Positions 7,334-64,000 of a DNA stretch of 64,000 nucleotides are shown one piece after another. The translations under genes were made by a program, and so were the position numbers. The notes beneath the pieces were generated by a model. It saw only the letters and a program-made list of their open reading frames with translations. It was not told the DNA's origin and searched no databases. Each line of letters starts with the position of its first letter. Within the stretch, counting starts at the first letter, position 1. Source of the DNA: Sphingomonas jaspsi DSM 18422 (GTDB taxonomy: Bacteria; Pseudomonadota; Alphaproteobacteria; Sphingomonadales; Sphingomonadaceae); NCBI RefSeq assembly GCF_000585415.1, contig NZ_KK073876.1, positions 989,810 through 1,053,809 on the forward strand, read 5' to 3'.

Positions 7334-7463
7334 GATGAATGTCCCCTCTTGCCGCGGACGCTGCGTCAAGCGGCGCTTTCTGGCAAGCATTTCCCGCTTT
7401 GGCCTTGACCGCAAAGGGTGTTTGGCCTTTGAGACCGACGACTCTATTCAGGTTGGAAGCTCC

Positions 7464-8768: not shown

Positions 8769-8770
8769 CG

Positions 8771-11014: not shown

Positions 11015-11024
11015 TGTTAACCTG

Positions 11025-11053
11025 TTGATTAATGAAGTTTCTGTGCGAATAGT
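11025..11053 (+). promoter_or_regulatory. Candidate promoter for the 11109 gene
   Basis: TTGATT (11025-11030) is separated by 17 nt from AATAGT (11048-11053), a fair sigma-70-type arrangement in the AT-rich gap after lpdA. It sits about 55 nt before the next start codon, which also has a strong GAGGGAGGA ribosome-binding site. Confidence 0.4.
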
Positions 11054-11108
11054 CCGATCCTCGGCCTTTCCGTTGTAGAGGAATGGCCATCGTTCGAGGG
11101 AGGATCGC

Positions 11109-11846: not shown

Positions 11847-11886
11847 CGCTGGACAGCCCCGCCGATGCCGCTAGGCATTGGCGGGG

Positions 11887-48118: not shown

Positions 48119-49743
48119 GTATCGTCCAACGCCTTGCGCGCCCTGCGATCCTTGCGCTGCCGCCGGTCGACATCGCCGGTGCACCCGTGCCCGGCACCGT
48201 CCGGCTCGACGCCAACGAAAATCCCTACCTGCCGCTGGTCCAGGGGCAGCCGGGGATCAATCGCTATCCCGATCCGCAACCCCTGTCGCTGCGTCGCCGG
48301 ATGGCCGACCTTTATGGCGTGACCGCCGACCGGCTGTGGGTGACGCGTGGCAGCGATGACGCGATCGACCTGCTCATCCGCGCATTTTGCGAAGCGGGGC
48401 GGGACAGCATCGCCATCGTCGAGCCGACCTTTTCCGCCTATGCCCAGTTCGCACGGGTGCAGGGGGCGGACGTTGTGAGGGCGCGCCTCACCGACGACTT
48501 CCGCTTCGATGCCGATGCGGTGATCGCGGCGTGCCGGGACGCTAGGCCGAAGCTGCTGTTCCTGTGCACGCCCAACAACCCGACCGGCACGCCGGTCGAT
48601 CCGGCCGACGTTCGCCGCATCGCGGGCGCACTGCCCGATACGCTGGTCATCGCCGACGAGGCCTATGGCGAATTTTCGGACCAGCCCAGCCTGGCTGCCG
48701 AAGCCGAGGGCAATGTGGCCGTGCTGCGCACCCTGTCCAAGGCCTATGGCCTCGCCGGCGCGCGCATCGGATGCCTCATCGGATCGCCCGAACTGGTCGA
48801 CCTGGTATCGCGCGTGTCGCCGCCTTATCCGCTGCCCGGCCCGAGCATCGCCGCGGCCCTCGACGCGCTGGGCCCCGAACGGATGCCGATCCACCGCCAG
48901 CGGGTCGCCGATCTGTTGGCCGAGCGCGCGCGACTGGCCGGGGCGCTGCGCGGGGTCGATGAGATCCGGAGCGTTCGCGAGGGCGGCAATTTTCTTTTCC
49001 TTGAGGTGGCCGATCCGGAGGATTTGGCGCGACGGCTGGCTGCCGCCGCCGTCCGCGTCCGCTTCCGCCCCAACGCGGCGCCGGGCGGCGTCCGGATTAC
49101 GGTCGGTACAGCGGAGGAAAATGCAGCCGTCCTCGGCGTGTTCGGTCTTGCCGCCGACCGGCCCGGCCGCCGAGCGTCCGTCGTTCGCGATACCAAGGAA
49201 ACGCGGATCGCGCTTGCCATCGACCTCGACCGCGACGGGCCGCGGCAGATCGACAGCGGCGTTCCCTTCTTCGACCATATGCTCGACCAGGTCGCGGCGC
49301 ATGGCGGGTTCGCGCTGACGCTGGCCTGCGACGGCGACACCGACATCGACCCACACCACAGCGTCGAAGATGTCGCGATCGCGTTGGGCACCGCGCTGAA
49401 CCGGGCGCTTGGCGACAAGCGCGGCATCGGCCGCTTCGGCTTCGCCCTGCCGATGGACGAAACCGAAGCGCAGGTGCTTATCGACTTGTCGGGCCGACCC
49501 TTTGCCCGGTTCGACGGCAGCTTCGCGACCCCTGCCGTCGGCGACCTGCCGACGCAAATGGTGCCGCATATATTCCGTAGCATCGCCGACAGCCTTGGTG
49601 CGGCGATCCACGTTCGCGTGTCCGGCGAGAATGATCATCACAAGGTCGAAGCCTGCTTCAAGGCGTTCGGCCGCGCGCTTCGGCAAGGGCTGGCGATCGA
49701 AGGCAGGGGCGACGCGCTCCCATCGACCAAGGGCATGCTGTGA
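48115..49743 (+). CDS. hisCB: Fused histidinol-phosphate aminotransferase / imidazoleglycerol-phosphate dehydratase
   Basis: One continuous 542-residue frame holding two histidine enzymes. Residues 1 to about 345 are HisC: VRLDANENPYLPL, CTPNNPTGTPVD and the PLP Lys209 in RTLSKAYGLAGARIG. Residues from about 353 are the HisB dehydratase: VVRDTKETRIALAIDLDRDG, SGVPFFDHMLDQVAAHGG, and both metal motifs, HH414-415 (PHHSVEDV) and HH508-509 (NDHHKVEAC). The linker is only a few residues. No phosphatase domain is present. The hisH start overlaps its stop (GTGA). These enzymes are usually separate proteins, so the fusion is notable. Confidence 0.93.
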   Translation: MSIVQRLARPAILALPPVDIAGAPVPGTVRLDANENPYLPLVQGQPGINRYPDPQPLSLRRRMADLYGVTADRLWVTRGSDDAIDLLIRAFCEAGRDSIAIVEPTFSAYAQFARVQGADVVRARLTDDFRFDADAVIAACRDARPKLLFLCTPNNPTGTPVDPADVRRIAGALPDTLVIADEAYGEFSDQPSLAAEAEGNVAVLRTLSKAYGLAGARIGCLIGSPELVDLVSRVSPPYPLPGPSIAAALDALGPERMPIHRQRVADLLAERARLAGALRGVDEIRSVREGGNFLFLEVADPEDLARRLAAAAVRVRFRPNAAPGGVRITVGTAEENAAVLGVFGLAADRPGRRASVVRDTKETRIALAIDLDRDGPRQIDSGVPFFDHMLDQVAAHGGFALTLACDGDTDIDPHHSVEDVAIALGTALNRALGDKRGIGRFGFALPMDETEAQVLIDLSGRPFARFDGSFATPAVGDLPTQMVPHIFRSIADSLGAAIHVRVSGENDHHKVEACFKAFGRALRQGLAIEGRGDALPSTKGML

Positions 49744-50330
49744 CCGCGCTTGCCATCCTCGACCTTGGCTATGGCAATACGCGTTCGATCGCGCTGGCGT
49801 TCGAACGACTGGGAGCCGATCCCCGGCTGACCGACGACCCGGCCGTAGCTGCGGGGGCAGGGCGGCTGGTGCTGCCGGGTGTCGGAGCGGCAGGAACGGC
49901 GATGCAACGGCTGCGCGAGACCGGTCTCGACGAGACCCTGGCGACGCGAACCCGGCCGACGCTCGGCATCTGCCTAGGGATGCAATTGCTGTTTGAGCGC
50001 AGCGAGGAAGATGGCGGGATCGATCTGCTCGGCATTCTTCCGGGCGAGGTTCGCGCACTTGCGCCAAAGCCCGGCTTTCCCGTTCCGCACATGGGCTGGA
50101 GCCGGATCGAAGCCGCCACCGACGGTACCGGCGTCGATGCGGGCGACTATGTCTATTTCGCCCACGGCTATGTCTGCCCCGACGGGACGGCGACGTCGGC
50201 AACAAGCATGTATGGCGACGCGACGGTGCCGGCCGCGATCCGGCTGGGCCACCTCTGGGCCGCGCAGTTCCACCCTGAACGCTCGTCGTCGCCGGGCGCC
50301 AATTTCCTGAAAGCTTTCTTGCGCTCATGA
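49740..50330 (+). CDS. hisH: Imidazole glycerol phosphate synthase, glutaminase subunit
   Basis: Class I amidotransferase feeding ammonia to HisF, 196 aa. It has LAILDLGYGNTRSIALAFER, LVLPGVGAAGTAMQ, nucleophile Cys in PTLGICLGMQLLFERSEED and the His/Glu dyad in LWAAQFHPERSSSPG. The start is GTG 49740 within the hisCB stop; it overlaps hisA by 4 nt. Confidence 0.95.
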   Translation: MTALAILDLGYGNTRSIALAFERLGADPRLTDDPAVAAGAGRLVLPGVGAAGTAMQRLRETGLDETLATRTRPTLGICLGMQLLFERSEEDGGIDLLGILPGEVRALAPKPGFPVPHMGWSRIEAATDGTGVDAGDYVYFAHGYVCPDGTATSATSMYGDATVPAAIRLGHLWAAQFHPERSSSPGANFLKAFLRS

Positions 50331-51055
50331 AACTCCTTCCCGCCATCGACCTTATCGGCGGCCGCTGCGTGCGGCTCGAACAGGGCGACTTCGATCGTGA
50401 GACGACCTACGACGACGACCCCGCGGCCGCGCTTGCCGGGTTCGTCGAGGGCGGCGCGGAGGAAGCCCATCTCGTCGATCTGGACGGCGCGAAGGCGCGC
50501 GAGCCGCGCCAGCATGGCCTGTTCGTCGACCTCGCCATGGCCTCGCCGCTGAAGCTGCAGGTCGCGGGCGGCTTCCGCACCCATGCGCAGGTCGAACGGG
50601 TGCTGCTGAACGGCGTCAACCGCGTGGTCATCGGCAGTCTCGCGCTCGACGATCCCGCGCTGTTCAGCGCGATGCTGGCCGATTTCGGGCCCGACCGGCT
50701 GACACTCGCGCTCGACGTGCGGGTTGAAAACGGTGTCCCGATGGTCGCGACCCATGGCTGGCTGACGGGGTCCGGGCGTACGCTGGATGCGGTGCTGAAA
50801 GACTTTCCGCTGGTCCGCCACCTGCTGGTCACCGACATCGCCCGCGACGGCATGCTGTCAGGGCCCAACGCCCACCTGATGCAGGATATCGCCGAGCGCT
50901 TCCCGACCATCGAACTGCAGGCATCGGGCGGGGTCGGCGGTCTCGACGATCTCACCGTGCTGCGCGCGACCGGCGCGCGTCGGGCGATCGTCGGCAAGGC
51001 CATCTGGGAGCGACGGTTCAGTGTCGCCGAAGGGATAGCACATGCCCGCGGCTAG
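50327..51055 (+). CDS. hisA: ProFAR isomerase
   Basis: TIM-barrel isomerase of the fourth histidine step, 242 aa. Catalytic Asp residues are in [20 protein letters not shown] and [17 protein letters not shown], and the phosphate sites are LQVAGGFRT and [13 protein letters not shown]. It overlaps hisF by 14 nt. Confidence 0.95.
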
Positions 51056-51809
51056 GATCATTCCCTGCCTGGACGTGGCCGACGGGCAGGTGGTGAAGGG
51101 TGTCCAGTTTCGCGACCATCGCGTCATCGGCGATATCGTCGAACACGCACTACGTTACCGCGACGAAGGGGCCGACGAGCTGGTCTTCTACGACATCACG
51201 GCCAGCGCCGACCGGCGCAGCGTCGATCCGGCCTGGGTCGAGCGCGTCGCGGCGGTGATCGACATTCCCTTCAGCGTCGCCGGCGGGATCGGCGATGTCG
51301 ATACCGCCCGCACCATCCTGTCGGCCGGTGCCGACAAGGTCAGCGTCAACTCGCCCGCGCTCGACCGGCCCGACCTCCTCGCAGAACTCGCCGCCGCCTT
51401 CGGCCGCCAATGCGTCGTGCTGGGAATCGACAGCTTGGTCGGCGACGACGGGACGCTACAGGTCAAGCAATTTACCGGTCGCCCCGACGCAACCCGCGAC
51501 AGCGGTCGCGACACGATCGGTTGGGCGCGGCAGGCCGTCACGCTGGGCGCAGGAGAAATCGTGCTGAACTGCATGGATCGCGACGGCGTGCGCCGCGGCT
51601 ACGACCTCGACCAGCTCGGCGCCTTGGTCGCGGCGGTGGACGTACCGGTCATCATCTCGGGCGGCGCGGGCGAACCGCAGCACTTTGCCGACGCCTTCCG
51701 CGCTGGGGCGAGCGGCGCGCTCGCGGCGTCGGTCTTTCACGACCGCCGCATCGCGATCGCCGACCTCAAGGACTATCTCGCGAGCCAGGGACTGGAGGTT
51801 CGGCCATGA
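51042..51809 (+). CDS. hisF: Imidazole glycerol phosphate synthase, cyclase subunit
   Basis: TIM-barrel cyclase partner of HisH, 255 aa. Catalytic Asp residues are in [20 protein letters not shown] and [20 protein letters not shown], with [20 protein letters not shown] and [20 protein letters not shown] forming phosphate sites. Its start lies inside hisA, and its stop overlaps the hisIE ATG. Confidence 0.96.
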
Positions 51810-52405
51810 TCGATCCCGACACGCTGGCTTGGGACAAGATGGGCGGCCTCATCCCCGTTATCGTTCAGGACCGCAGCGACGGCGCGGTGAGGATGGTTGG
51901 CTATGTGAACCGCGATGCGCTGGCGGCGACGATCGACAGCGGGTTCGTGACATTTTTCAGCCGATCCAAGCAGCGGCTCTGGACCAAGGGCGAAATCAGC
52001 GGCAACCGGCTGCGGCTGGTGGCGGCGCGCGCCGATTGCGACGGTGACGCACTATTGCTGACCGTTGATGCCGAAGGTCCGACCTGCCACTTGGGCACGC
52101 CCAGCTGTTTCGGCGATATCGAAGCGAATCCGCACTTCCTCGACGCTCTTGCTGACCGCGTGCGCGACCGGGCGTCGGCCGACCCAAGCGACAGCTATAC
52201 TGCAAGGCTGCTGTCACAAGGGGTGAAACGCATTGCCCAGAAAGTCGGGGAAGAGGGCGTCGAAACCGCCCTCGCTGCCACGGCCGGCGACCGTGACGAG
52301 CTCATCAGCGAAGCTGCCGATCTCATCTATCATCTCACCGTTCTGCTGCAGGCAAAGGATATCGGCTGGGACTCGGTCGCGGCGGAACTTGAGCAGCGTA
52401 AGTAA
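51806..52405 (+). CDS. hisIE: Bifunctional phosphoribosyl-AMP cyclohydrolase / phosphoribosyl-ATP pyrophosphatase
   Basis: Performs steps two and three of histidine synthesis, 199 aa. HisI domain (about 1-105): [37 protein letters not shown], and metal sites in [20 protein letters not shown] with CHLGTPSCF. HisE domain (about 110-199): [20 protein letters not shown] and [20 protein letters not shown]. It ends the his operon. No histidinol phosphatase (hisN or hisB-N) is encoded in the operon. Confidence 0.93.
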
Positions 52406-52647
52406 TGTCGTTTAGAGACCGTTATGTTGCGCCTTAATAACAGCTAATTACTTGATGTAAGTTGATAATTTTCGCAATTGTGGGTAAGTCCATTTTGCGA
52501 CTCGCTTCATTGGCGAGGTATCGGGGATCATGACAGTTTTTCGATAGCGTGGCGTCGGCCGCGCCTCTTTTAGCTGTGCTATTCGATCTCCGCCTCCCGC
52601 CGTCTTGCGCAGTCCGCGACGCTGCTCGGGGAGGAGGCTGCCGCAAG
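52406..52647. other. AT-richer non-coding gap before the accessory cluster
   Basis: A 242-nt interval after hisIE. The first 100 nt are clearly more AT-rich than the flanks (around TTAATAACAGCTAATTA and TTGATAATTTTCGCAATTG) and probably hold the promoter of the regulator gene. I could not fix -35 and -10 boxes. I see no terminator hairpin for the his operon and no RNA gene. Confidence 0.5.
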
Positions 52648-53523
52648 ATGCCGGCATGGAGCGTTCGCCTGTTTGGTGCGGAAGAATTGCGCTTCCACCA
52701 ACACCCCATCCAGTCCTTGCCAGATATATGGTGGCCGATGTTCTCGGCATTGCTGGCGGCCCCGCGCGCCTCATTATCCCGCTCGCGGTTGGCTGGCGGC
52801 TTGTGGCCCGAGCGCGATGAAGGTGCGGCGCGACACTGCCTGTCCACGGCCCTGTGGCGGATCCGAAGCAAGCTGCCGCCGGACCAGGCGTTGATCGACG
52901 TCCACGACGAAACCATCAGCCTCAACCTCGCCCATTGCTGGATCGATGCGCCGGTGATGGTCCGACGGGCGCAGCGCATTACGATCGAACCCGCGTTGCT
53001 CGATGTCGCCAATGAGCGGGACCGGCTGGGTCGCGCGCTGGCGCTTTATCGCGGCAGTTTCATGCCCGAGCGCAACTATGAGTGGATCGCCCTAGAGCGC
53101 GAACGGATGCGGACCCTGTTCCTCGATGCCATGTATCAGCTTGCCGTGGCGGAACTGGCGGCTGGCCGCATCGACCGCGCCCGCAACAGTGCGCAGCGGC
53201 TGTGCGAGGTCGAACCCTTCCGCGAAGATGCGCAGCGGTTGCTGATGACGGCGCACGACCGGTCCGGCAGTCGCGGCATGGCACTGGCGCAATATCGCGA
53301 CCTGCGCGAGCTGCTGAAGTGCGAATTGGGGATCGAACCGATGCCGGAGACAGTCCGGCTGGCGGAACGCATCGCGTCCGGTCGACCTGATATGTTCGAC
53401 CCTGCGCCGGCAGCGCGGCCGGTGCCGAAGCGCCGACCCGATCGCGATCGCGCGCTCCTTCTCGCTGCGCGCGACCTGCTGTCGCAATCGCTCGCGCTGA
53501 TCGACCAGACGATCGATCGCTAG
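52648..53523 (+). CDS. SARP/BTAD-type transcriptional regulator
   Basis: Predicted DNA-binding activator of 291 aa with a SARP-like layout. The N-terminal winged helix includes SRSRLAGGLWPERDEGAARH and CLSTALWRIRSKLPPDQALI. The bacterial transcriptional activation domain (about 98-250) has LYRGSFMPERNYEWIALERE, the TPR-like LAVAELAAGRIDRARNSAQR and LLKCELGIEPMPETVRLAER. ATG 52648 is chosen because GGAGG lies 10 nt upstream and the winged helix follows. It precedes a set of 11-bp direct repeats and the unknown-function cluster, so it probably activates that cluster. Confidence 0.8.
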   Translation: MPAWSVRLFGAEELRFHQHPIQSLPDIWWPMFSALLAAPRASLSRSRLAGGLWPERDEGAARHCLSTALWRIRSKLPPDQALIDVHDETISLNLAHCWIDAPVMVRRAQRITIEPALLDVANERDRLGRALALYRGSFMPERNYEWIALERERMRTLFLDAMYQLAVAELAAGRIDRARNSAQRLCEVEPFREDAQRLLMTAHDRSGSRGMALAQYRDLRELLKCELGIEPMPETVRLAERIASGRPDMFDPAPAARPVPKRRPDRDRALLLAARDLLSQSLALIDQTIDR

Positions 53524-53886: not shown

Positions 53887-55137
53887 ATGAATTACCCGCT
53901 CCAGTCGGATCCCTACGCCCATCTTCGTCAGATCGTCGATCCGCGGTTCGCCATGCTCCCGGCGGCGCAGCTTCGCGCACAGATCGACGGCAGTTTCGGT
54001 GAAGGATCCGCCGACGCGATGGAGGCCGATTTCGAAAATATCTTCGGCAGCATCGGCCATGCGATCTCGTCGGCCGCGCGCGACGTCGGCCACTTCGCCC
54101 AGCGCAACGCGGGCGGCCTCGCCCAGATCGGCGGCGGCGTGATCCAGGGCGCTATGGCGGGTTCGGCCGCGGGCTTGCCAGGCATCATTGCGGGCGCGGC
54201 GCTAGGCGGTACCGGCGCGGGACTGCGAACCTATGGCAGCGGCGCGGCGCGCGACGTCGGCAATGCCCTCGGCACCGTCACCAACCTTGCCGGACAATTC
54301 TCGCCGCTCGGACGCGTCGGCGCGACGCTCGGCCCGGCAGTCGGGAATATCGGCGGCGCGTTCGCTACCGGCGGCGGCCGTGGCGGCGTCGCAGCGCTCG
54401 GCCAGGCACTGCCCGGCCTCGTGTCGGGCATCGCCGGCGGGATCGGCGGCGGCGGAATGGGCGGACGTCTCGGGTCGGGCCTGGGTGCGCTCGGCGGATT
54501 GATGGGTGGCGGTCAGCAAGGCCGTGCACCCGGCGGAATGGGCGGTGTCGCTTCCGGTCTGCTCGGCGCAGCTCCGCAAATCGCAGGCGCATTGTCCGGG
54601 CTGTTCGGCGGCAACAGCGCGGCCGGGCAACTCGCCAGCGCCATGAACCGACCCGAAATCCAGCAGGCGCTGGGGGCGATGCGGCTGGGCCCGATGGGTC
54701 GTCCGACCATCCCCGTCGGATCGGCCCAGACGCCTGTCCCGACCGGCCAGTTCGCCCAGCTGCTGAGCCAATTGATGGGCGTAGCGGCGCACGAATGGGC
54801 CGAAAGCGCGGGCGCCGAGGCGGAGGCTGCAGAAGTCAGCTTCATGACCGACAGTGCCGACAATTTCTTCGGCGATCCCGCCAACCCGGCGGACCGCGCC
54901 GCGCATCTGTGGGCGCTCCTCAATGCGGCCCAGAGCGAACGGTTCGCCGACGCGATAGAAGCGGTAGGCTGGGAGGCGCAGTACGATGGCGCAGTTAGCG
55001 ACTTTTACGCCGCGTCCGAAGCGGACAGCTACGACGCCGACGCGCTTTACTGGGACAGCATCGACCAGGCCGAAGCCGATGCGCTGAACGAACAACTCGA
55101 CAGCGACTATGCGCTGGAAGGCATGGAATATGCCTGA
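53887..55137 (+). CDS. Glycine-rich protein with acidic C-terminus, unknown function
   Basis: A 416-residue protein in three parts. Residues 1-70 are a charged helical head (ADAMEADFENIFGSIGHAIS). Residues about 75-245 are strongly Gly/Ala-rich with glycine-zipper spacing (GGVIQGAMAGSAAGLPGIIA, GGIGGGGMGGRLGSGLGALG). Residues 290-416 are acidic and aromatic (SEADSYDADALYWDSIDQAE). There is no signal peptide. The glycine-zipper core could insert in a membrane or self-assemble; both are inference. CGGAGG lies 5 nt before the ATG. The end overlaps the next gene. Confidence 0.75.
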   Translation: MNYPLQSDPYAHLRQIVDPRFAMLPAAQLRAQIDGSFGEGSADAMEADFENIFGSIGHAISSAARDVGHFAQRNAGGLAQIGGGVIQGAMAGSAAGLPGIIAGAALGGTGAGLRTYGSGAARDVGNALGTVTNLAGQFSPLGRVGATLGPAVGNIGGAFATGGGRGGVAALGQALPGLVSGIAGGIGGGGMGGRLGSGLGALGGLMGGGQQGRAPGGMGGVASGLLGAAPQIAGALSGLFGGNSAAGQLASAMNRPEIQQALGAMRLGPMGRPTIPVGSAQTPVPTGQFAQLLSQLMGVAAHEWAESAGAEAEAAEVSFMTDSADNFFGDPANPADRAAHLWALLNAAQSERFADAIEAVGWEAQYDGAVSDFYAASEADSYDADALYWDSIDQAEADALNEQLDSDYALEGMEYA

Positions 55138-55717
55138 GCGCGATCTCGACGACGAGCCCGTGCTCGATCTCGGCCTCGACCCGCAGCCGGCCAAGGCAGC
55201 GATGTCGGCCAATACCATCCTCGACCTCGTCACCGGCGGCGGGTCACCCCAGTCGCTGCTTGGCGCGCTGTCGGGGCAGCTGGGCGGAGGACCCGAACTC
55301 GACATGCTGGTCAAGCTGATGAAGGACAATGGCGCCAACGAAGAGCAGATGCGCCAGCAGATCCGCGAGGAAATGGCGGCCCAGCATCGTGAGATCGTCG
55401 ACGAACTCGGCGACCTGTCGGAGCGGCTGCTCGAAGAGAATCGCGCGCATTGCCGCCGCCTGGAACGGCTCGCGGCGGCGCTGGGGGCCTGTCCGAACTG
55501 CTTCGGCGAGGACCTTCTCTGTGACCAATGCGACGGTCGCGGCCGACCCGGCTCGGACCTGCCCGACCCCGCAGAATTCAATCAGTTCGTCAGCCCCGCG
55601 CTCGACCGGGTGAAAGCGGAAATCTTCCGCCCGACCCGCGGCAGGCCGGTGCCTCGAACCCGCTCGGCCGGGATCGCCGAGACTTTTCGTTCAAGCATTG
55701 CAGGAGTGAGACCATGA
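55130..55717 (+). CDS. Coiled-coil protein with paired CxxC motifs, unknown function
   Basis: A 195-residue protein, co-translated with its neighbours: its ATG lies inside the previous gene's end and its stop overlaps the next ATG. Residues about 60-120 are helical and charged (EEQMRQQIREEMAAQHREIV, DLSERLLEENRAHCRRLERL), a likely coiled coil. Then comes CPNCFGEDLLCDQCDGRGRP, two CxxC pairs resembling half of a DnaJ-type zinc module. No known family is assigned. Confidence 0.75.
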   Translation: MPERDLDDEPVLDLGLDPQPAKAAMSANTILDLVTGGGSPQSLLGALSGQLGGGPELDMLVKLMKDNGANEEQMRQQIREEMAAQHREIVDELGDLSERLLEENRAHCRRLERLAAALGACPNCFGEDLLCDQCDGRGRPGSDLPDPAEFNQFVSPALDRVKAEIFRPTRGRPVPRTRSAGIAETFRSSIAGVRP

Positions 55718-56298
55718 GCATCTATGACGTAGACGTCGGCGAACTGGAAAGCGTCGACAGCTTCCTGTTCCGCGACGGTGAATCGAGCGATTACGACAGT
55801 GCCGACGCGTGGGAACGCAATCGTCCGCGCCCGCGCCCGGTACCGACGGCCCAAGGGCGGCCGCTGTCGCCGTCGCGGCCCGGTGGGGGCGGTGCGACCG
55901 GCAATTATGTGACCCAGGCCCAGCTCGACGCCGCGCTGGCGCGGGCGCGCAGCGAAATCAGCGCCAATGCCAAGGCGATCAAGACCGTCGACGGCCGCGT
56001 CCGCACCTCCATCGCCGACATGCAGCGGCTGCAGTCGATCACCCGCAAGGACATGGACAAGCTGCAGGGCGACCTTCGCACCACGCAGACGCTGTCGGCG
56101 CTGGTGCCGATGCTGACCGCCAACGCCAGTCCGAAGGTGCAGAAGCTGGCGCCGCTGGTCCACCTGCTTCCGTCCGGGACGCTCGGCGGGACGGGATCCT
56201 CCTCCGGCGGCAGCAGCACCAACTCGCTTCTCGGCGGCAGCAACAACAACCTGATCGCGATCGCCGCGATCGCCTTCGCTGCCAAGGCCTTCGACTAG
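55714..56298 (+). CDS. Cluster protein with acidic head and helical middle, unknown function
   Basis: A 194-residue protein. The acidic N-terminus (MSIYDVDVGELESVDSFLFR, DGESSDYDSADAWE) is followed by a Pro/Arg linker (RNRPRPRPVPTAQGRPLSP). A helical segment follows (AQLDAALARARSEISANAKA, MQRLQSITRKDMDKLQGDLR), then a Gly/Ser linker and a short hydrophobic tail (NNNLIAIAAIAFAAKAFD) that could be a membrane or interface helix. ATG overlaps the previous stop (ATGA). Function unknown. Confidence 0.75.
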   Translation: MSIYDVDVGELESVDSFLFRDGESSDYDSADAWERNRPRPRPVPTAQGRPLSPSRPGGGGATGNYVTQAQLDAALARARSEISANAKAIKTVDGRVRTSIADMQRLQSITRKDMDKLQGDLRTTQTLSALVPMLTANASPKVQKLAPLVHLLPSGTLGGTGSSSGGSSTNSLLGGSNNNLIAIAAIAFAAKAFD

Positions 56299-56340: not shown

Positions 56341-56925
56341 ATGTCCACCAATCCCAATGACTTGTTGCGCGACCCCGCGGTGAGGGCACTGATTGCCACC
56401 GCGATGGTCAGCGACGCACGTGACGATCTGCGCGTGCCCTGCGTCGTGGCCGCATGGGCGCTCGAAGGTCCGCTGTCGATCGTGCCCGCGGCAGTGGCTT
56501 CGGCGCAGCCGGACGATCGGCCGACGTTCGTGGGGAAAGAGCGGTCGACGCTCGCCGACCGGCAGCGCCGGGACCGTGAAGACTTCGAGCAGATGCAGGC
56601 CGACGAGCGCGAGGCCGAGCGGATGGCCGAAGGAAAGTTGCGCGCGCAGGACCGCCTCAATCGCTGTGCCGAGGCCTTCCTCGACGCGGTCAAGCAGTTC
56701 GAGCCAGCCGAAGAAGAGGAGGACCGCGACCTCAAGGCCAATCTGACGGCGATCGCCGCCTGGCTGCGGGAACAGGGTTCGTCCAGCGCGAAGGAGGCGG
56801 CAACGGCGGCGGCCGATGCCGCGGCGGCGGTGCCCGACACACCGACCCAATCGAGCCAGGCCAGTCAATCCGTCGAGCAGACCGGCGCAGCGGCGGTGAA
56901 GCCGTCCACCAAGAAGCCGACATAA
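56341..56925 (+). CDS. Charged helical cluster protein, unknown function
   Basis: A 194-residue protein with GGGGAG about 8 nt before the ATG. Residues 1-55 form a mixed helical head (LLRDPAVRALIATAMVSDAR). Residues 68-135 are a long highly charged helix (DRQRRDREDFEQMQADEREA, RMAEGKLRAQDRLNRCAEAF), a probable coiled coil. The tail is low-complexity Ala/Ser/Thr. No family or catalytic motif is recognised. It ends 12 nt before the giant gene. Confidence 0.72.
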   Translation: MSTNPNDLLRDPAVRALIATAMVSDARDDLRVPCVVAAWALEGPLSIVPAAVASAQPDDRPTFVGKERSTLADRQRRDREDFEQMQADEREAERMAEGKLRAQDRLNRCAEAFLDAVKQFEPAEEEEDRDLKANLTAIAAWLREQGSSSAKEAATAAADAAAAVPDTPTQSSQASQSVEQTGAAAVKPSTKKPT

Positions 56926-56937
56926 TGGGGGCGGGCC

Positions 56938-59900
56938 GTGGAAAGCGCTCTGGTCGAACTGTTCCATGAAGGCGCACCGGATGATGTCGTACCGGTCATC
57001 ATCCGGCTGCACCCGGGACAGCAGATGCCGGCGGCGGTTCGCGCCGTCGCCAGCTTCGGCCTGATCCACACGGCCCGCATCCTGCGCAGCGACATTTTCG
57101 CGGTCCGCGACCTCGTCGCCAGCATGAAAAAGCCGCAGGATTATACGGCCGCCACGGCGGGCGATGAGGAAGAAGTCGGGTTCGACGACCTGACGGTGCT
57201 GACGTCCGACCACCGCCGATCGCCCGACATGCCGACCGGGCGCGGGGTGGTGCTCTGCCATCTCGACTGGGGCCTGGACTTCACCCACCCTGCCTTTCGC
57301 AACTCGGACGGCAGCACCCGCCTCGTCGCCTTGTGGGACCAGGCGGGTCGATACGATCCGGCGCGGCCCAACATTTACGGCTTCGGGCGGATCCACAGCC
57401 GCGCCGACATCAACGCGGCGCTGGCGACGCCCGATCCGTTTCGCGCGCTCGGCTATCGCTGGTGGAGTTCGGACAGCGGTCGCGGCAGCCACGGCACCCA
57501 CACGCTCGGCATCGCCGGCGGCTCGGCGCTGCCCGACATCCCGGCAGGCTACGCGCCCGGCGCCGACCTGTTGTTCGTCGACCTGTCGACCCGCACCCCG
57601 GCCGGCCCGCAGCCGCTGGGCAACTCCACCGACCTGCTGGAAGGCATCGATTTCGCCGACCGGTGTGCCGGCGATCGCTGCCTCGTGGTCAATGCCAGCC
57701 TGGGCCGCCAGGCCGGCCAGCATGACGGGCTGACGCTGACCGAACAGGCGCTGGACTATTTCCTCACCCGCCGCACAGGCCGGGCGATGACGATGAGTTG
57801 CGGCAACTACCGCAACAAGCATGCCCACACCCACCTGCTCATGACGCCGGGCGAACGGCGCAGCCTCACCCTCCAGCTGGCAGCAGGGCAGCGCAAGGCG
57901 GAACTCGACATCTGGTATTCGCGCAATGACCGGTTGCGGATCGGCTGCACGGGGCCTGACGGGCTGGCGACGACACCGCTTGACCCGGGCGGAACGTCCG
58001 ACCTCACCAATGGCCATCGAATCGTTGGCCGGCTGTACCATCGCGGCGACGACCCCAACAACGGCGACCGGCAAGTGTCGCTGTTCCTTCATGGCGATGC
58101 GCCCGCCGGAGCCTACACCATGACGTTCGAAGCGCTGTCGATCGGCGATGGCCGGGTCCACGCCTGGGTAGAACGCGATCCCGCGGGGGCCGCGCGGCTG
58201 CGCTTTTCCGATTCCGACGACGACCCCCGCAGCACGGTCGGCACGATCTGCAACGGGTTCGCGACGATTGCGGTTGCGGCCTATGACGCGCACCAGCCGG
58301 ACCGGCCTCCCGGGCCTTTTTCCAGCCAGAGCCCGACGCGCGACGGGCGCACGTCGACGCCGCGCGTGGCGGCACCCGGCGTCAAGGTGCTCGGCCCCCG
58401 ATCGACACCGCACAGCGGCGGCGCAGCGCCTTCGGCGACACGCATGTCGGGAACCAGCATGGCCGCACCGGCCGTCGCCGGGACCATCGCCATGCTGTTC
58501 GATTGCGCGGGCCGACCGCTCAGCATCGATGATGTCAGTGCGCTGGTGGTCGAGACCGCCGATCCGGTCGCGGAATCCGACCGCGAACGGCTCGGCGCCG
58601 GATATCTCAATCCCGCGGCCGCCATCGCCGCCTGCCGGTCGCTGCCGGTCCGCGCGGCCCTTCCCATCCCGCGGCAGCCGCCGCTCAGTCCCCGCCCGCA
58701 ATTCCGGGTGCCCCACATGCAGGAGGCCATCATGTCCAGCCAGGAAGAATTCGAGCAGACCGGCGAAGGCCATGTTTGCGACAGCGACAGCGAACTGGAG
58801 ATGGCCGACGACGAACAATTCGCCACCGACGAAGAATTTTTCGCGACCATGGAGGGAGACGAAGCCGAACTCGACGAAGCGGAATCGCTCGCCGAAGGCA
58901 GTGACGCGTTAGGCGACGGCTACCGCCGACGGGGCGGGTGGGGCGGCGGCCTGCCGTTCCAGTTCCAGATCCCCATCGGCGGATCGGGCGGCCTGGGCAT
59001 CGGCGTCCCCATCGGCGGGCGCAACAGCCCCTTCTCGATCGGCATACCGCTCGGCGGAACCACCCCGCCCGCGCCGGCGGCAGGGCCCACCACGATCGTC
59101 AACCCCGGCCAGGTGGTCGTCCAGCCCGGCGCACCGGGAACCGTCGTGACCATGCCGACGCCTCTCGACCAGCCGATCGTGACCGCGCTCGACCTGCCGC
59201 AGGACCCCGTGTCGACCGCCACCGAACTGGCCGTCGCCGAGGCCGAGCTGGGCGAGGATGCGGATTTCGACACCGATGCAGAACAAGCCGATGCCGAAGC
59301 CGACGCGGCAATGCTGGAAGAGGCCGGGCGGATCGCGGCGCTGCAGCAGGAATGGGCACTCGACGACTATCGCGAGGTCGACGCGCGCTACGAGGCCGAA
59401 CAGCTGATCCAGGCGGCGGAAAGCCTGGAGGCCGTGCCCGAAGGCAGCGATGCGCTCTGCCGCATGCTGGGCGAGCGTGTCGGCACCGGCAATGCCGAGA
59501 GCGAGGGCGAAGCGTCGACCTCGCTTTACGAGCTCTTCTCGCGCGTTCGGCACGGCGAGGAATCCGGCCTGCGCCTGCTCGGCCGGGCGGCGCGGATCAT
59601 CCTGTCGCCGGGCGCGGCGCTCGACGAACGTCGCCCGCGGCGCGGCGACATCATGCTGCGCATGTTCCCGGGGCAACGCTTCGTCCAGCTATCGGTGGTG
59701 GCTAGCCCCGAACTGATCAGTCTCGACCGACTCGGCCAGCGTGGCTTGCAGCCTGAAGGCCGGGGCGACCCGCTACCGGGACGCTACGTCCAGGTGGTCG
59801 AGGCGTGGCCGATGCGGCGGACCCAGGACGAAGGATTTGCCCGGCGGCTGACCAATGCCGCTGACATCGTGTCGCTCGACACGATGATCCTGCGGCTGAT

Positions 59901-62900
59901 GCCGGAAGGCTATGTCGGCGGGGACAGCGACGGCGAAGACGACCCGGCCCACCCCCGCCTCGCGCCCGGAGCGCACGGGCCCGACGTCGTCGCGCTGCAA
60001 CGGCGACTGAACGAACTTCACCAGCGGCGCGAAGCGGCCGGCATGCCCGGCCTTGCCAACATGCCGCTGGCCGAGGACGGCCAATATGGCCCGCGGCTGC
60101 AGGCGGCGGTCCAGTCGATGCAGCGGCTTGCGCCGCCGGCAATGGTGCCAAGCCCGAGCGGGATCATGGACGAAGGAAGCTGGCGCGCGCTGGCCTTCCT
60201 GGAGGCCGCCCAGTCGATCGCCAGCGTTGCGGGACAGGTCCGCAGCCAGGCAAGGAATGTGGCTCGTGCGGTCGGCATCCCGACCGGGACCAGCGCCGGA
60301 CAGGAAACGGTCGAACATGTGCCGCTGCTGGCATCGCACCGGGGAACGTCGCCCGACCTGCTGTTGCGCTGGAACGACATGCCGGCGGGCACCAGCCGGG
60401 TCGACGTGGTGGTGCACCTCCATGGCTTTTCGGGTCATGGCGCGGCGATGCGGATCGACCGCGACAAGTTGCCGATCAGCGGACTCGATTTCTTCGATCC
60501 CGATCACCCTGGCTCTACCGGGCGCACGGCGCCGACGCTCTGCATCATGCCGCGCGGCAATTATTACGGCGGGCGAACCCACATGGGCTATGATTTTCCC
60601 GCGCTGTTCGCGAGCGGGGCGTTCAATGCGCTGATCCGCTTCGCGCTCGAACGGTTCGCGGCGTCCGCAGGTATCGCCAATGCACAGCCGGGGCGGGTGA
60701 TCCTGACCGGGCATTCGGGCGGCGGCGCGGCGATCATGCGGCTGCTGGCCGAGAATGACCCGGACGAGATTTACTGCTTCGACGCGCTCTACAACAATCC
60801 CGCGCCGCTGATCCGCTGGGCGCAGGATCGGCTGTCGTCCGGGCGGGGCGCGACGTCGGCGTTGCGCATCATGTTCCGCGAAGGCGAAGGCACCGCGCGA
60901 AACAGTCACGCGGTGGCGGCGGCGATTGCGCCGGCGCTGGCCGGACACCCCGATCTCGCGGCGCGTTTCCGTGCTGAGCCGGTGCCGGTCCAGCACAACG
61001 ACATTCCGCGCCGGTTCGGCTGGCGATTGTTGGCCGATGCTACCGCCGATCTCGGCCTCGGCCAGCCTCGCGCGCCGCGCCGCCAGACGCCGCATGACGC
61101 GGCCGACGGCGGGTTCGAATTTGACATGGATACGGACGGCCCCTCGGAAGGCCTGGCCCAGGCCGAGGTCGACCGGCTGGCGCGCTGCACCTTCAGCGAC
61201 AGCGCGGGTCTGGAGCGATTTTTCACACAGGCCGGCGGCTTTGCCGACTGGTTCAACCGCACCTTGTCCGGCCATGGACCGTTCGTGCGGCCGGGCCGGG
61301 GCGGCGTCCTGCGCGTGCCGACCGGGGACGAGGCGAGGGAGCGCTTCCGCCGCTTCTGGGACCGGCTCGACCTCGCCTATCGCCAGCCGTCGATCAGCCT
61401 GCTCGAGTTCGCATCCCTGATGGCGATCGTGCTGAACGAGACCGACGGTAACTTCGCCGGCCGCACCGAATCCAGCGGGCGCGGTGGCGGGGGGCGAACC
61501 GATTCACGCGGCCATCATCGCGGACTGGCCTATTTCTTCGATCGCATCGAACTGCGTCCGGGCCACTTCAAGGCCAGCTACAATCGGCTGAGCGGCGGGC
61601 GCACCGCGGGGTCGTTGTTCAACGATCCGGTCTACATCCGCGCCCATGGCTCGCTCGGCGGCGCAGATCGCTTCGCGCATCACGGCGACGACGACAACGG
61701 CGTGTGGAACGGCGACCAATATCCGGCCGACCATGTGCCGACCGACGAGCATGTTGCCGACACCGCCTTCATCCGCGAAGCCGACTTCTACAAGTTCCGC
61801 GGCCGCGGGATCATCCAGACGACCGGCAGGCCGGCCTATCTGCGGCTGGTCCAGACGGTGAAGACCTACCGTGGCAGCAATCCCGTGCTGACGGCGCTGG
61901 CGTCGGCGTGGGCCGCTATGTCCGATCAGGACGCCTGCACCGCCAGCACCAATGCCCAGTGGGAACAGTTGTTCGCGCTGCCCGAAACGCTGGGCATGGC
62001 TTTTGCCCTCCATTCCCCCGGCTACCGCATCATGAGCCGGCAGGCCGACATCCTCAATGCCGTCCCAGCGCCCGGCCATCGCGGGCAGGCCGGTTCGATC
62101 TTCCTCATGGGGCGGCGGATCAGCGGTAGCGCCGACTATGGCGCACACCTCTATCGCGACCGGGTAGTCGGCCTGCTCCGCGGGATGCTGCAGCTACCGC
62201 TCGACGCGTCGGCAAGCGCCGCGCCGCCGACGGTTCCTGCCCGGCCCTCGTCTCAGGAAAGGCCGAGGCAGGAAACCGATCCGCAGCCCGCAACGAGTGC
62301 TGCGCGACCGGGACATCGCCTCGCCAGCGTCAGGCCGCAAGGACGTGCGACACCGCCCGACGAAGCGACAGCACGCAGCCAATGGGATGCCCATCCGCGG
62401 GTCCATCACCATTTCCACAACCAGTTCGACACCTATTTCGACATGGCGCCGAAATTCGCCGCGCGCGGGGTGGCGGATGCCGCGGCCTACCTCGCCGACA
62501 ATATGACAGAACTGAATTTCATGGGGCATCGGACGCCGGGCCACCGTGGCTTCGTCGCGCCGCTTGCCGAGGCGGAGGCGATGCTGCGCGGACATCAGGT
62601 GACGCCGCCCGTGACCTCCTTCTGGTCATTGAACGTGCGCACCATGCGCGACAACGCCTCGCTCAGCCTGCATTCGTTGGGCTTGGCGTTCGACATCAAC
62701 CCTCGCACCAACCCGCACATCCAAAGGGCGTGGCACGACGAATTCGCCGTCATCCATGCGGTGACCGGCGTCGACCTGTTGCGCACCCGCGATCCGGCGC
62801 GACTGCGCGCGGCAAGCGACCAGTTCAGCCGCGACTTCAACAGCCAGTGGGTAGCGACGCAGACCGATCCCGCGATCGTCCGCGCCCTGCGCAACCGTCG

Positions 62901-63045
62901 CACGCTCGAACGGCTGCAGGGCTGGGCCACCACCGGCCTGTGCACGCTCGACCTTGCCCTGATCGAAGCCTTCCTCGCGGTCGGGCTTCGGTGGGGCGGT
63001 CAGTGGAACCAGTCGAAAGACTTCATGCACTTCGAACTGCCTTGA
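56938..63045 (+). CDS. Giant multidomain protein: S8 protease, PG-binding-like, alpha/beta hydrolase, GH19-like, M15 peptidase
   Basis: A 2,035-residue protein from GTG 56938 without a signal peptide. Residues about 100-565 are a subtilisin-like protease with Asp110 (CHLDWGLDF), His185 (GSHGTHTLGIAGG), Asn290 (SCGN) and Ser507 (MSGTSMAAPAVAG). A very acidic and Gly/Pro-rich linker spans 600-800. Residues about 1005-1065 resemble a peptidoglycan-binding repeat (PGAHGPDVVALQRRLNELHQ). Residues 1150-1370 look like an alpha/beta hydrolase with VVVHLHGFSGHG and Ser1260 in ILTGHSGGGAA. Residues 1480-1750 resemble GH19 chitinase/lysozyme (Glu1501 in VLNETDGNF; KFRGRGIIQTTGR). Residues 1810-2035 are an M15-type murein peptidase (SLHSLGLAFDIN, His1912/Asp1919; WGGQWNQSKDFMHFE, His2031). 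An internal AGGAGG-ATG at 58721-58734 could start a separate 1,437-residue product. Confidence 0.85.
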   Translation: MESALVELFHEGAPDDVVPVIIRLHPGQQMPAAVRAVASFGLIHTARILRSDIFAVRDLVASMKKPQDYTAATAGDEEEVGFDDLTVLTSDHRRSPDMPTGRGVVLCHLDWGLDFTHPAFRNSDGSTRLVALWDQAGRYDPARPNIYGFGRIHSRADINAALATPDPFRALGYRWWSSDSGRGSHGTHTLGIAGGSALPDIPAGYAPGADLLFVDLSTRTPAGPQPLGNSTDLLEGIDFADRCAGDRCLVVNASLGRQAGQHDGLTLTEQALDYFLTRRTGRAMTMSCGNYRNKHAHTHLLMTPGERRSLTLQLAAGQRKAELDIWYSRNDRLRIGCTGPDGLATTPLDPGGTSDLTNGHRIVGRLYHRGDDPNNGDRQVSLFLHGDAPAGAYTMTFEALSIGDGRVHAWVERDPAGAARLRFSDSDDDPRSTVGTICNGFATIAVAAYDAHQPDRPPGPFSSQSPTRDGRTSTPRVAAPGVKVLGPRSTPHSGGAAPSATRMSGTSMAAPAVAGTIAMLFDCAGRPLSIDDVSALVVETADPVAESDRERLGAGYLNPAAAIAACRSLPVRAALPIPRQPPLSPRPQFRVPHMQEAIMSSQEEFEQTGEGHVCDSDSELEMADDEQFATDEEFFATMEGDEAELDEAESLAEGSDALGDGYRRRGGWGGGLPFQFQIPIGGSGGLGIGVPIGGRNSPFSIGIPLGGTTPPAPAAGPTTIVNPGQVVVQPGAPGTVVTMPTPLDQPIVTALDLPQDPVSTATELAVAEAELGEDADFDTDAEQADAEADAAMLEEAGRIAALQQEWALDDYREVDARYEAEQLIQAAESLEAVPEGSDALCRMLGERVGTGNAESEGEASTSLYELFSRVRHGEESGLRLLGRAARIILSPGAALDERRPRRGDIMLRMFPGQRFVQLSVVASPELISLDRLGQRGLQPEGRGDPLPGRYVQVVEAWPMRRTQDEGFARRLTNAADIVSLDTMILRLMPEGYVGGDSDGEDDPAHPRLAPGAHGPDVVALQRRLNELHQRREAAGMPGLANMPLAEDGQYGPRLQAAVQSMQRLAPPAMVPSPSGIMDEGSWRALAFLEAAQSIASVAGQVRSQARNVARAVGIPTGTSAGQETVEHVPLLASHRGTSPDLLLRWNDMPAGTSRVDVVVHLHGFSGHGAAMRIDRDKLPISGLDFFDPDHPGSTGRTAPTLCIMPRGNYYGGRTHMGYDFPALFASGAFNALIRFALERFAASAGIANAQPGRVILTGHSGGGAAIMRLLAENDPDEIYCFDALYNNPAPLIRWAQDRLSSGRGATSALRIMFREGEGTARNSHAVAAAIAPALAGHPDLAARFRAEPVPVQHNDIPRRFGWRLLADATADLGLGQPRAPRRQTPHDAADGGFEFDMDTDGPSEGLAQAEVDRLARCTFSDSAGLERFFTQAGGFADWFNRTLSGHGPFVRPGRGGVLRVPTGDEARERFRRFWDRLDLAYRQPSISLLEFASLMAIVLNETDGNFAGRTESSGRGGGGRTDSRGHHRGLAYFFDRIELRPGHFKASYNRLSGGRTAGSLFNDPVYIRAHGSLGGADRFAHHGDDDNGVWNGDQYPADHVPTDEHVADTAFIREADFYKFRGRGIIQTTGRPAYLRLVQTVKTYRGSNPVLTALASAWAAMSDQDACTASTNAQWEQLFALPETLGMAFALHSPGYRIMSRQADILNAVPAPGHRGQAGSIFLMGRRISGSADYGAHLYRDRVVGLLRGMLQLPLDASASAAPPTVPARPSSQERPRQETDPQPATSAARPGHRLASVRPQGRATPPDEATARSQWDAHPRVHHHFHNQFDTYFDMAPKFAARGVADAAAYLADNMTELNFMGHRTPGHRGFVAPLAEAEAMLRGHQVTPPVTSFWSLNVRTMRDNASLSLHSLGLAFDINPRTNPHIQRAWHDEFAVIHAVTGVDLLRTRDPARLRAASDQFSRDFNSQWVATQTDPAIVRALRNRRTLERLQGWATTGLCTLDLALIEAFLAVGLRWGGQWNQSKDFMHFELP
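58721..58734 (+). promoter_or_regulatory. Internal ribosome-binding site and start in the giant gene
   Basis: AGGAGG (58721-58726), five bases, then ATG at 58732, in frame at residue 599. It lies exactly after the S8 protease domain and before the acidic segment SSQEEFEQTGEGHVCDSDSE, which resembles the N-termini of other cluster proteins. It would yield a 1,437-residue product lacking the protease. Confidence 0.65.
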
Positions 63046-63069: not shown

Positions 63070-64000
63070 ATGGCCATGATTAGCGAAATCCTCCGCCCCT
63101 ATCTGACGCCGCTGGCGCAGACGGGCCAAGGCGGCGATGCGGCGGCGAACATTCGCTGGCTGCAGAGCGCGCTCAACCGGGTCAGCAATGCCGGGTTGAC
63201 CGTCGACGGCGTCGCCGGACCGCGCACGCGTGCCGCGGTACAGGCCTTTCAGCGCGAACAGGGGCTGACCCCCGACGGTGTTGCCGGTCCTTTGACGATG
63301 GCGGCATTACGCAGGGCCTTGGAAGGACAGCCGCAGGACCGTCCGCCGTCGCTGCCGGACGGTGGCCCACCGGCCTGCCGCGGCCTGCCGAAGCGTCAGG
63401 AACTGGACGGCTTCGCTTTCGGCCAGGCGCGCCTTGAACCGCAGCACCTGCCGGTGATCGACCAGATTGCGGCCTGCCTGGTCGCAAGCCTTGCGAGCTC
63501 GACCCCGGTAACCCGGCTGACCGTGATCGGTCATACCGATCCGGTCGGCGACGACCAGGCCAACGACGCGCTGGGCCTGCGCCGGGCGACGGCGGTCGCC
63601 GACGCGATCAGGGCGCGCATGACGCAATGGGGCGCACCCGCGACGGCCGTCGCGTTCGAGGTTTCAAGTCGGGGCGAGCGTGAGCAGGTGCCGGGCGATC
63701 CCGCGCACAACCGCCGGGTCGAGGTCGTCGCCCCGTTTGCTTATCCGCAAGTCCAGCCGATCCCGCCAATTCCACCGATCTGGCCGATCCCGCCGATCCC
63801 GCCGGTTCCGCCGTTCCGATCGCTGCTCGATCCGCCGCGCTGGGGGCCGCTGCTGGCCCGCGCCTTCGACGCCAGTACCGTCATCCGCACCGGCAATGCC
63901 GTTCGCCACCTGGTCGACGCGGAAAATCCGGCGCACGCCGCGCTGGCCGGCTACGACGCGATGGTCGCCGCGATCCGATCGGCAAGCGGGGGCGACGCGT
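63070..64000 (+). CDS. Peptidoglycan-binding / OmpA-like protein (3' end cut off)
   Basis: At least 310 residues, open to the window end. Residues about 25-85 are a PG_binding_1 domain (NIRWLQSALNRVSNAGLTVD, GPRTRAAVQAFQREQGLTPD). Residues about 108-222 match the OmpA C-terminal domain (LTVIGHTDPVGDDQANDALG, LRRATAVADAIR and NRRVEVV), which binds diaminopimelate. A Pro-rich run (PIPPIPPIWPIPPIPPVPPF) follows, then a new domain starts (SLLDPPRWGPLLARAFDAST). GAGGAGG precedes ATG 63070. No signal peptide or membrane anchor is seen, unusual for an OmpA-like protein. Confidence 0.8.
   Translation, partial: MAMISEILRPYLTPLAQTGQGGDAAANIRWLQSALNRVSNAGLTVDGVAGPRTRAAVQAFQREQGLTPDGVAGPLTMAALRRALEGQPQDRPPSLPDGGPPACRGLPKRQELDGFAFGQARLEPQHLPVIDQIAACLVASLASSTPVTRLTVIGHTDPVGDDQANDALGLRRATAVADAIRARMTQWGAPATAVAFEVSSRGEREQVPGDPAHNRRVEVVAPFAYPQVQPIPPIPPIWPIPPIPPVPPFRSLLDPPRWGPLLARAFDASTVIRTGNAVRHLVDAENPAHAALAGYDAMVAAIRSASGGDA

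What the first reader, a model, noticed from the sequence alone, without database searches (positions are those of the whole stretch)
56938..63045. A 2,035-residue chain of a subtilase and at least three cell-wall or ester hydrolase-like domains
The frame shows intact catalytic signatures for an S8 protease (Asp110, His185, Asn290, Ser507), an alpha/beta-hydrolase nucleophile (GHSGGG, Ser1260), a GH19-like domain (NETDGNF, FRGRGIIQTTGR) and an M15 peptidase (SLHSLGLAFDIN, DFMHFE), plus a peptidoglycan-binding-like repeat. I know of no described protein with this order. A protease and several murein-active domains in one chain, with no signal peptide, suggest a processed effector polyprotein or a lysis/export machine. 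The protease may cut the others free.
Basis: partly seen in the sequence, partly recalled or inferred. Interest (0 to 1): 0.88.

Follow-up and report, generated by a model that had tools for sequence, protein, structure and literature searches.

The report
Protease-headed lytic enzyme chain cassette
A bacterium carries a single giant protein that joins a protein-cutting enzyme to ester- and cell-wall-cutting enzyme domains, and it turns out to be one interchangeable version of an apparently undescribed gene cassette found in distantly related bacteria.

Summary
In detail: 56938-63045 is one open frame of 2035 codons with intact S8, alpha/beta-hydrolase and M15 sites; the GH19 part rests on a lysozyme-type motif only. 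The order is not unique: 28 other database proteins share it (43-67% identity), and catalytic residues are kept almost without exception.

The larger finding is the setting. The gene is the main enzyme gene of a conserved cassette: BTAD regulator, small ORF, g1 (glycine-zipper), g2 (zinc-ribbon), g3 (coiled-coil-like), g4 (hydrophobic hairpin), S8 protein, PG-binding/OmpA/phospholipase D. Profiles of g1, g2 and g3 find them in order before the S8 gene in seven other loci, among them Microvirga, Ramlibacter, Roseateles, Cupriavidus, Gemmatirosa and Streptomyces. Across 87 relatives, 77 have the S8 head, in eleven module combinations. Twelve same-genus genomes lack the protein.

My reading: a constant-head/variable-cargo lytic system, spread sporadically. 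A Csp-type protease (Csp proteases serve activation of a murein hydrolase) is fused to its cargo and probably matures it; bacterial envelopes are the likely target. Architecture, conservation and linkage are shown. Cleavage, export route and target are inferred. Six searches of an open-licence library listed no description that I could find.

The parts
52549..53523 (+). BTAD/SARP-type transcription regulator (324 aa as called; a start at 52648 is also possible)
   Evidence: Pfam BTAD E 1.6e-28; BLAST relatives upstream of g1 in L004 (opposite strand, 30% identity), L005, L006, L007; a BTAD gene on the opposite strand is annotated in Streptomyces canus L011
53629..53871 (+). small ORF, about 80 aa, unnamed; short ORFs of similar length lie near this place in L005, L007 and L004 (there on the minus strand)
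   Evidence: the similarity is weak and was not tested statistically
53887..55137 (+). g1: 416 aa, folded N-terminal helical domain, glycine-zipper segment, folded part at about 240-360, acidic tail; no Pfam match
   Evidence: 146 relatives, 120 listed, none of those with a Pfam domain; alignments A2, A6; model mean pLDDT 67.3 with two confident parts
55130..55717 (+). g2: 195 aa, zinc-ribbon-like CPxCFGED..CxxCxGxGxPGS
   Evidence: alignment A4, four Cys invariant in 5 of 5; profile hits in seven other loci
55714..56298 (+). g3: 194 aa, acidic N-terminus, coiled-coil-like middle, hydrophobic C-terminus
   Evidence: alignment A3; profile hits in seven other loci
56341..56925 (+). g4: 194 aa, hydrophobic N-terminal hairpin then a charged region; matched to the short gene in other loci by position; that gene has a PASTA domain in L004 and L005
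   Evidence: sequences and hydropathy; PASTA in the two scanned; own g4 has no PASTA
56938..63045 (+). the 2035-residue S8-headed multi-enzyme protein
56938..57162 (+). residues 1-75: presumed S8 prodomain
   Evidence: conserved in the alignment; the prodomain role is inferred from position, as matches to solved Csp proteases start at residue 95-101
57232..58647 (+). residues 99-570: S8 protease with a Csp-like insertion between the catalytic Asn and Ser
   Evidence: D110 H185 N290 S507 invariant
58951..59073 (+). residues 672-712: LPFQFQIPIGG..GLGIGVPIGG..SPFSIGIPLGG, a three-fold motif in an otherwise variable linker
   Evidence: conservation 0.83 at 676-700 against 0.40-0.57 in the other windows of 576-875; strict pattern in 41 of 87 proteins, spaced repeats in 47 of 87, spacing 13 most often
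59515..59937 (+). residues 860-1000: 'GDLLLR' domain, common second module of the group, no Pfam match
   Evidence: home-made profile found it in 74 sequences of the pooled set
59950..60207 (+). residues 1005-1090: peptidoglycan-binding domain
   Evidence: PG_binding_1 in 17 of 17 alignment members
60289..61053 (+). residues 1118-1372: alpha/beta-hydrolase (esterase-type)
   Evidence: model and fold search; S1260, D1282, H1353 invariant in 17, kept in 58 of 59
61135..62232 (+). residues 1400-1765: GH19/lysozyme-like domain
   Evidence: motif-level matches to endolysins; E1501, R1621, Q1627 kept in 38 of 38
62350..63045 (+). residues 1805-2035: M15 (VanY-type) metallopeptidase, and the stop codon
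   Evidence: PF13539 E 2.5e-13; H1912 D1919 H2031
63070..64000 (+). start of a 774-aa protein: PG-binding + OmpA + phospholipase D (runs off the window; whole in L003:380-2704)
   Evidence: Pfam; neighbour of the giant, 62-65% identical, in L004 and L005

Best explanation
This is the main enzyme of a sporadically distributed, probably regulator-controlled cassette that makes a constant-head/variable-cargo lytic polyprotein. Shown: (1) a run of genes from a BTAD regulator through g1-g4 to the S8 protein and, in several loci, a phospholipase D; (2) a constant head (Csp-type S8 protease, in most relatives followed by the GDLLLR domain and a peptidoglycan-binding domain) joined to changing enzymes; (3) catalytic sites kept almost without exception. 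Inferred: the chain is made without Sec export, leaves the producer by a route that involves g1-g4 (glycine-zipper and hydrophobic-hairpin proteins) or by lysis, is held on murein by the PG-binding domain, and the protease, after cutting off its own prodomain, cuts the disordered linkers or partner proteins so that esterase, muramidase-like, M15-peptidase and phospholipase parts act together on a bacterial envelope. The most likely target is other bacteria.
For: g1, g2 and g3 profiles hit in order before the S8 gene in 8 of the 12 loci examined, own included. Eighteen contig lengths, own included, are shared exactly between the g1 list and the S8 list, against a mean of 0.15 (at most 2) when lengths are shifted. 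77 of 87 proteins carry the S8 head, in eleven module combinations; precomputed domains show further changing cargo. PLD, OmpA and hemopexin/amidase modules are fused to the S8 head in some relatives and separate in others. Active sites intact. Csp relationship with the CspB/SleC precedent (PMC3567191, passages). The giant is absent from 12 of 12 same-genus and 8 of 8 same-order genomes; g1 is in 1 of 142 class genomes, the own one, while the same model finds it in 7 of 7 cassette genomes or records.
Against: No cleavage site stands out in the variable linkers, so processing between domains is unproven. One genome probably carries the modules on two proteins (P0044, P0033), so cis cleavage is not essential. 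No immunity gene was recognised. Cargo in relatives includes domains that I recall as chitosanase, arginine deiminase, tyrosinase and carboxypeptidase, wider than bacterial envelopes. No export route was found, and the own genome has no T6SS sheath or Baseplate_J match. Two of the three cassette plasmids are typed non-mobilizable and one mobilizable, and no empty site could be shown, so mobility rests on sporadic distribution. g1 matched no solved fold (low-confidence model). The Streptomyces S8 protein lacks a GDLLLR profile hit.
Confidence: 0.45

Rival explanations
1. Self-lysis device: the cassette is expressed by a few cells, g1/g3/g4 open the inner membrane as a holin would, and the enzyme chain digests the producer's own wall and lipids, releasing common goods.
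For: No visible signal peptide, small proteins with hydrophobic parts next to murein-hydrolase domains, closely packed genes, no immunity gene seen, Csp proteases act in the cell's own cortex lysis (PMC3567191, passages).
Against: No match of g1, g3 or the C-terminal enzymes in 50,697 phage records, where lysis modules are common; cargo variation in relatives is more than self-lysis needs; no transmembrane-grade stretch in own g1 or g3 by hydropathy (own g4 and L006 g3 have one).
Confidence: 0.25
2. Extracellular or vesicle-borne digestive enzyme set for nutrients (dead microbes, fungi), not a weapon; the variable cargo tracks the food source.
For: Cargo in relatives covers proteins, polysaccharides, lipids and murein (domain names partly recalled).
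Against: No secretion signal found on the own enzymes by hydropathy; a dedicated set of g1-g4 with a regulator is unusual for plain digestive enzymes (judgement).
Confidence: 0.17
3. The fusion is a passive gene fusion with no coordinated function: neighbouring hydrolase genes lost their stops.
For: Domains are mostly known kinds and separated by variable linkers.
Against: Same order kept in 29 of 87 proteins down to 43% identity; conserved linker motif; same gene order in Actinomycetota and Gemmatimonadota.
Confidence: 0.03

Closest known systems
Csp germination proteases (CspB, CspBA of Clostridium) and SleC activation
   Same: Closest solved relatives of the protease over residues 100-522, with catalytic set and the insertion between Asn and Ser aligned; a subtilase tied to a murein hydrolase.
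   Different: Protease and hydrolases in one chain; further enzymes and cassette genes that Csp loci lack (recalled for the Csp side).
Polymorphic toxin systems (PMC3482391, passages)
   Same: Constant N-terminal part with changing C-terminal effectors; processing proteases, subtilisin among them, are listed there.
   Different: No recognised trafficking leader or immunity partner; several enzymes per chain; the constant part is itself the protease; companion proteins g1-g4 without known family.
NTP-dependent conflict systems with peptidases and murein-active effectors (PMC7159879, passages)
   Same: Peptidase plus peptidoglycan-acting effector logic; in some chains there a trypsin and a subtilisin domain flank a nuclease.
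   Different: No NTPase, EAD, vWA/MoxR or nuclease family over its cut-off in the own cassette genes.
Phage endolysins of GH19 and M15 type
   Same: Domain kinds of the C-terminal half.
   Different: No match to the C-terminal 918 residues in the phage records; in IMG/VR only one contig, over residues 1850-1925 at 33%.

Membership tests
Csp-type subtilase (S8) | Catalytic Asp/His/Asn/Ser in subtilase context | tested here: met
Csp-type subtilase (S8) | Domain inserted between catalytic Asn and Ser (jelly roll in CspB) | tested here: inconclusive
   The insertion is aligned through with CspB; fold not modelled
Csp-type subtilase (S8) | Retained, self-cleaved N-terminal prodomain | not testable with these tools
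   A conserved N-terminal region exists; cleavage needs an experiment
Csp-type subtilase (S8) | Needed for cleavage of a murein hydrolase zymogen | not testable with these tools
   Hydrolase domains are in the same chain; cleavage untested
Polymorphic toxin | Constant N-terminus with variable C-terminal effectors | tested here: met
   77 of 87 proteins with the S8 head in eleven module combinations, further cargo by precomputed Pfam
Polymorphic toxin | Recognised trafficking leader or secretion signature | tested here: inconclusive
   None found by Pfam, NCBIfam or hydropathy; an unknown leader is not excluded
Polymorphic toxin | Immunity gene next to the toxin | tested here: inconclusive
   No recognised immunity family among the own cassette genes; g1-g4 have no known function
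T6SS or eCIS effector | Sheath or baseplate machinery in the same genome | tested here: not met
   VipB and Baseplate_J absent from the own genome; of the five cassette genomes searched VipB is in 2 and Baseplate_J in 1, so delivery of that kind is not excluded elsewhere
Phage lysis module | Homologues in phage genomes | tested here: not met
   No match for g1, g3 or the C-terminal enzymes in phage records; no g1 and one short M15-region match in IMG/VR; the S8 part matches 6 records at 25-31%; g2 and g4 not searched
GH19 / lysozyme superfamily (residues 1400-1765) | GH19 fold and catalytic Glu | tested here: inconclusive
   Motif-level match E 0.0019, Glu1501 kept in 38 of 38; low-confidence model
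M15 peptidase (residues 1805-2035) | SxHxxGxAxD and a C-terminal His zinc ligand | tested here: met
Alpha/beta-hydrolase (residues 1118-1372) | Fold and Ser nucleophile with His | tested here: met
   the model is of modest confidence

The most novel reading that the evidence does not exclude
The cassette is a previously undescribed interbacterial weapon or lysis system of its own kind: g1-g4 form a dedicated carrier or membrane passage, the three-fold LPFQFQIPIGG/VPIGG/VPLGG motif and the GDLLLR domain are the loading tags, and the Csp-type protease is the built-in trigger that frees whichever enzymes happen to be fused or co-encoded.
Probability: 0.3. Interest if true: 0.9.

Novelty: new variant of a known kind. 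Interest (0 to 1): 0.72.

Why it matters
If right, a widely scattered set of 'S8 family serine peptidase' and 'hypothetical protein' entries becomes one modular system with swappable enzymes, and gives a direct test of protease-triggered murein lysis outside spores. It would also give the unnamed proteins g1-g4 a common role, and reveal a constant head into which nature plugs very different enzymes.

Tried and rejected
Unique or chance architecture: rejected (29 of 87 proteins). Fusion or assembly artefact: rejected, as relatives in other assemblies keep the order. T6SS or baseplate-type delivery in this host: no VipB or Baseplate_J match in the own genome. Phage origin: (see membership test). 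S8 loci on plasmids of Rhizobium (L012), Acaryochloris (L013), Sphingobium (L015) and Paenibacillus (L017) have the S8 head but no g1, g2 or g3 profile hit, so the S8 head also exists without the cassette; of 32 plasmid records with an S8 match seven were opened.

Empty-site test: hisF and the acetyl-CoA synthetase gene flank the islet here, but in the ten same-genus genomes searched their best matches lie far apart or on different contigs (hisF not found in one), so no clean empty site could be shown. Composition does not mark the islet as foreign. Promoter scan gave 1 site against 1.4 in shuffles, terminator-like sites 13 against 6.6. PADLOC gave only partial matches: a subtilase model, a MukB-like one for g4, and DrmC, MotB-like and ZacB ones for the PLD protein. 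The model of residues 1120-2035 was too weak for the GH19 and M15 parts; in the fold second look only model residues 1-252 were really tested. The g1 model gave no solved match (best E 4.4); at this confidence that says nothing about a new fold.

Scans of genome contigs: none with the single protein, six loci with the alignment; two of these, L008 and L009, match only the M15 end and were not used. That scan missed known carriers (for example P0021), so it does not measure frequency.

Papers: searches found none; one search found 45 papers, 15 listed, of which I looked at passages of three (PMC7159879, PMC3482391, PMC12419801); two searches listed two each, of which one was PMC7159879 and the others were not opened. 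None of what I saw describes the cassette or the fusion. One search was for Csp (PMC3567191, passages). The library holds open-licence papers only.

Dropped before counts: the Cupriavidus S8 protein was translated in a wrong frame and so fell out; only the 120 listed of 146 g1 proteins and 25 of 91 proteins of the PLD search were compared. Module calls use BLAST at 1e-4 and can miss diverged domains, by profile, finds the GDLLLR domain in more. All candidate lists are capped at about 8000 scored.
Full report
OBSERVATION. The frame 56938-63045 on the plus strand is an uninterrupted ORF of 2035 codons from GTG to stop. It is the only match in the window's own genome, a 2.55-Mb contig. It starts 12 bases after the stop of the gene before it, and the next gene starts 24 bases after its stop. 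Pfam places S8, PG_binding_1 and M15_4.

RELATIVES. A search of about 5.8 billion proteins returned 87 relatives, own included, with lengths 0.55-1.75 times the query (only the 7986 candidates sharing most words were scored). By BLAST of six modules, 29 of 87 have the full order S8 - GDLLLR - PGB - hydrolase - GH19-like - M15; 77 of 87 have the S8 head, in eleven combinations, 56 of the 77 with the GDLLLR domain and 49 with the PG-binding domain; 10 lack the head. Precomputed Pfam lists add PLD, M23, amidase, OmpA and hemopexin (names given), and others whose names I recall from accession numbers only: chitosanase GH46, GH25, S10 carboxypeptidase, arginine deiminase, tyrosinase, LCAT, glucosaminidase. 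Active sites are kept: S8 81 of 84, alpha/beta-hydrolase 58 of 59, GH19-like 38 of 38, M15 42 of 43; the exceptions are alignment gaps at a site. So the enzymes look selected as enzymes.

THE CASSETTE. Around the giant lie a BTAD regulator, a small ORF, g1, g2, g3, g4 and, after it, a PG-binding/OmpA/PLD protein of 774 aa. In Microvirga (L004) and an alphaproteobacterial MAG (L005) BLAST finds the regulator, g1, g2, g3, giant and PLD gene in this order, the L004 regulator on the opposite strand; in Ramlibacter (L006) and Roseateles (L007) all but a separate PLD gene, and there the PG-binding and OmpA parts are fused to the S8 protein. Profiles of g1, g2 and g3 also hit, in order before the S8 gene, on plasmids of Cupriavidus oxalaticus (L010), Streptomyces canus (L011) and Gemmatirosa (L014); in all, 8 of the 12 loci examined have the three (own included) and 4 have the S8 head alone. 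The Streptomyces locus has a BTAD gene annotated on the opposite strand and an M4 metallopeptidase downstream, and its S8 protein gives no GDLLLR hit; the Gemmatirosa locus has, before g1, a reading frame that looks like a response regulator by eye. g4 is matched by position: a short gene between g3 and the S8 gene, with a PASTA domain in the two scanned (L004, L005) and none in the own one. A g1 search returns 146 proteins, none of the 120 shown with a Pfam domain. Eighteen contig lengths, own included, occur in both the g1 list and the S8 list; shifting the lengths by 1 to 200 gives a mean of 0.15 and at most 2. This is co-residence, not proof of adjacency, though many of these contigs are short.

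DISTRIBUTION. None of 12 same-genus and 8 same-order genomes has the giant. g1 occurs in 1 of 142 class genomes, the own one; the same model finds it in 7 of 7 cassette genomes or records. Three relatives sit on plasmids, one typed mobilizable and two non-mobilizable. A clean empty site could not be shown. So the cassette is accessory; horizontal spread is likely but inferred.

MECHANISM. Precedent: CspB processes itself, stayed bound to its prodomain on purification, and its activity is needed for efficient SleC cleavage; Csp proteases cut SleC at a single site (PMC3567191, passages seen). Here the same type of protease is fused to murein-hydrolase domains. The simplest reading is a self-maturing lytic chain held on murein by its PG-binding domain. 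That g1-g4 serve export is inferred from their constant presence, the glycine-zipper and hydrophobic segments, and the lack of a visible signal peptide; nothing shows it. Against cis cleavage as an essential step, P0044 (S8-GDLLLR-PGB, with PLD domains) and P0033 (GDLLLR-PGB-hydrolase-GH19-M15) report contigs of equal length, as does the g1 protein P0167, so one genome probably carries the modules on two chains.

COMPARISON AND NOVELTY. It works like a polymorphic toxin in its constant-head/variable-cargo layout, but two defining features (leader, immunity) were not found, so I do not file it as a member. It does not look like a phage lysis module, nor like a T6SS/eCIS effector in this host. 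One PLD relative (P0253) carries PF13699, which I recall as the eCIS-linked DUF4157; that is a lead only. Six paper searches for the cassette or the fusion listed no description that I could find; I read passages, not whole papers. I rate it a new variant of a known kind, with a 0.3 chance that it is a system of its own.

Noticed in passing
window 58951-59073: A three-fold LPFQFQIPIGG/VPIGG/VPLGG motif with mostly 13-residue spacing, strongly conserved inside a variable linker; a similar IPIGG stretch opens the gene in the g4 position of Gemmatirosa (L014 8089-8748).
   Followed up: partly
window 59515-59937: A ~160-residue domain without a Pfam match (RPGDLLLR...WGHVAVVAS...YVxVVE...FARRL) that follows the S8 head in most relatives; by eye it recalls an inactive papain/NlpC-type fold (not tested).
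   Followed up: partly
L010 3105-3611 and 6122-7291: Two g1-like genes on opposite strands of the Cupriavidus plasmid; the first is short, possibly a remnant.
   Followed up: no
L012 (Rhizobium leguminosarum plasmid) 1-12470: A different run of caspase, serine protease, S53 peptidase, S8 peptidase and phospholipase D genes without g1-g3; possibly an analogous hydrolase set.
   Followed up: partly
P0253: A PLD relative with PG-binding and PF13699, recalled as the eCIS-linked DUF4157 domain.
   Followed up: no
window 49740-52405: Reading frames that look like histidine biosynthesis genes (hisH/hisA/hisF/hisIE type, by eye) lie directly before the cassette; an acetyl-CoA synthetase-like gene follows it (L003 2711-4675).
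   Followed up: partly
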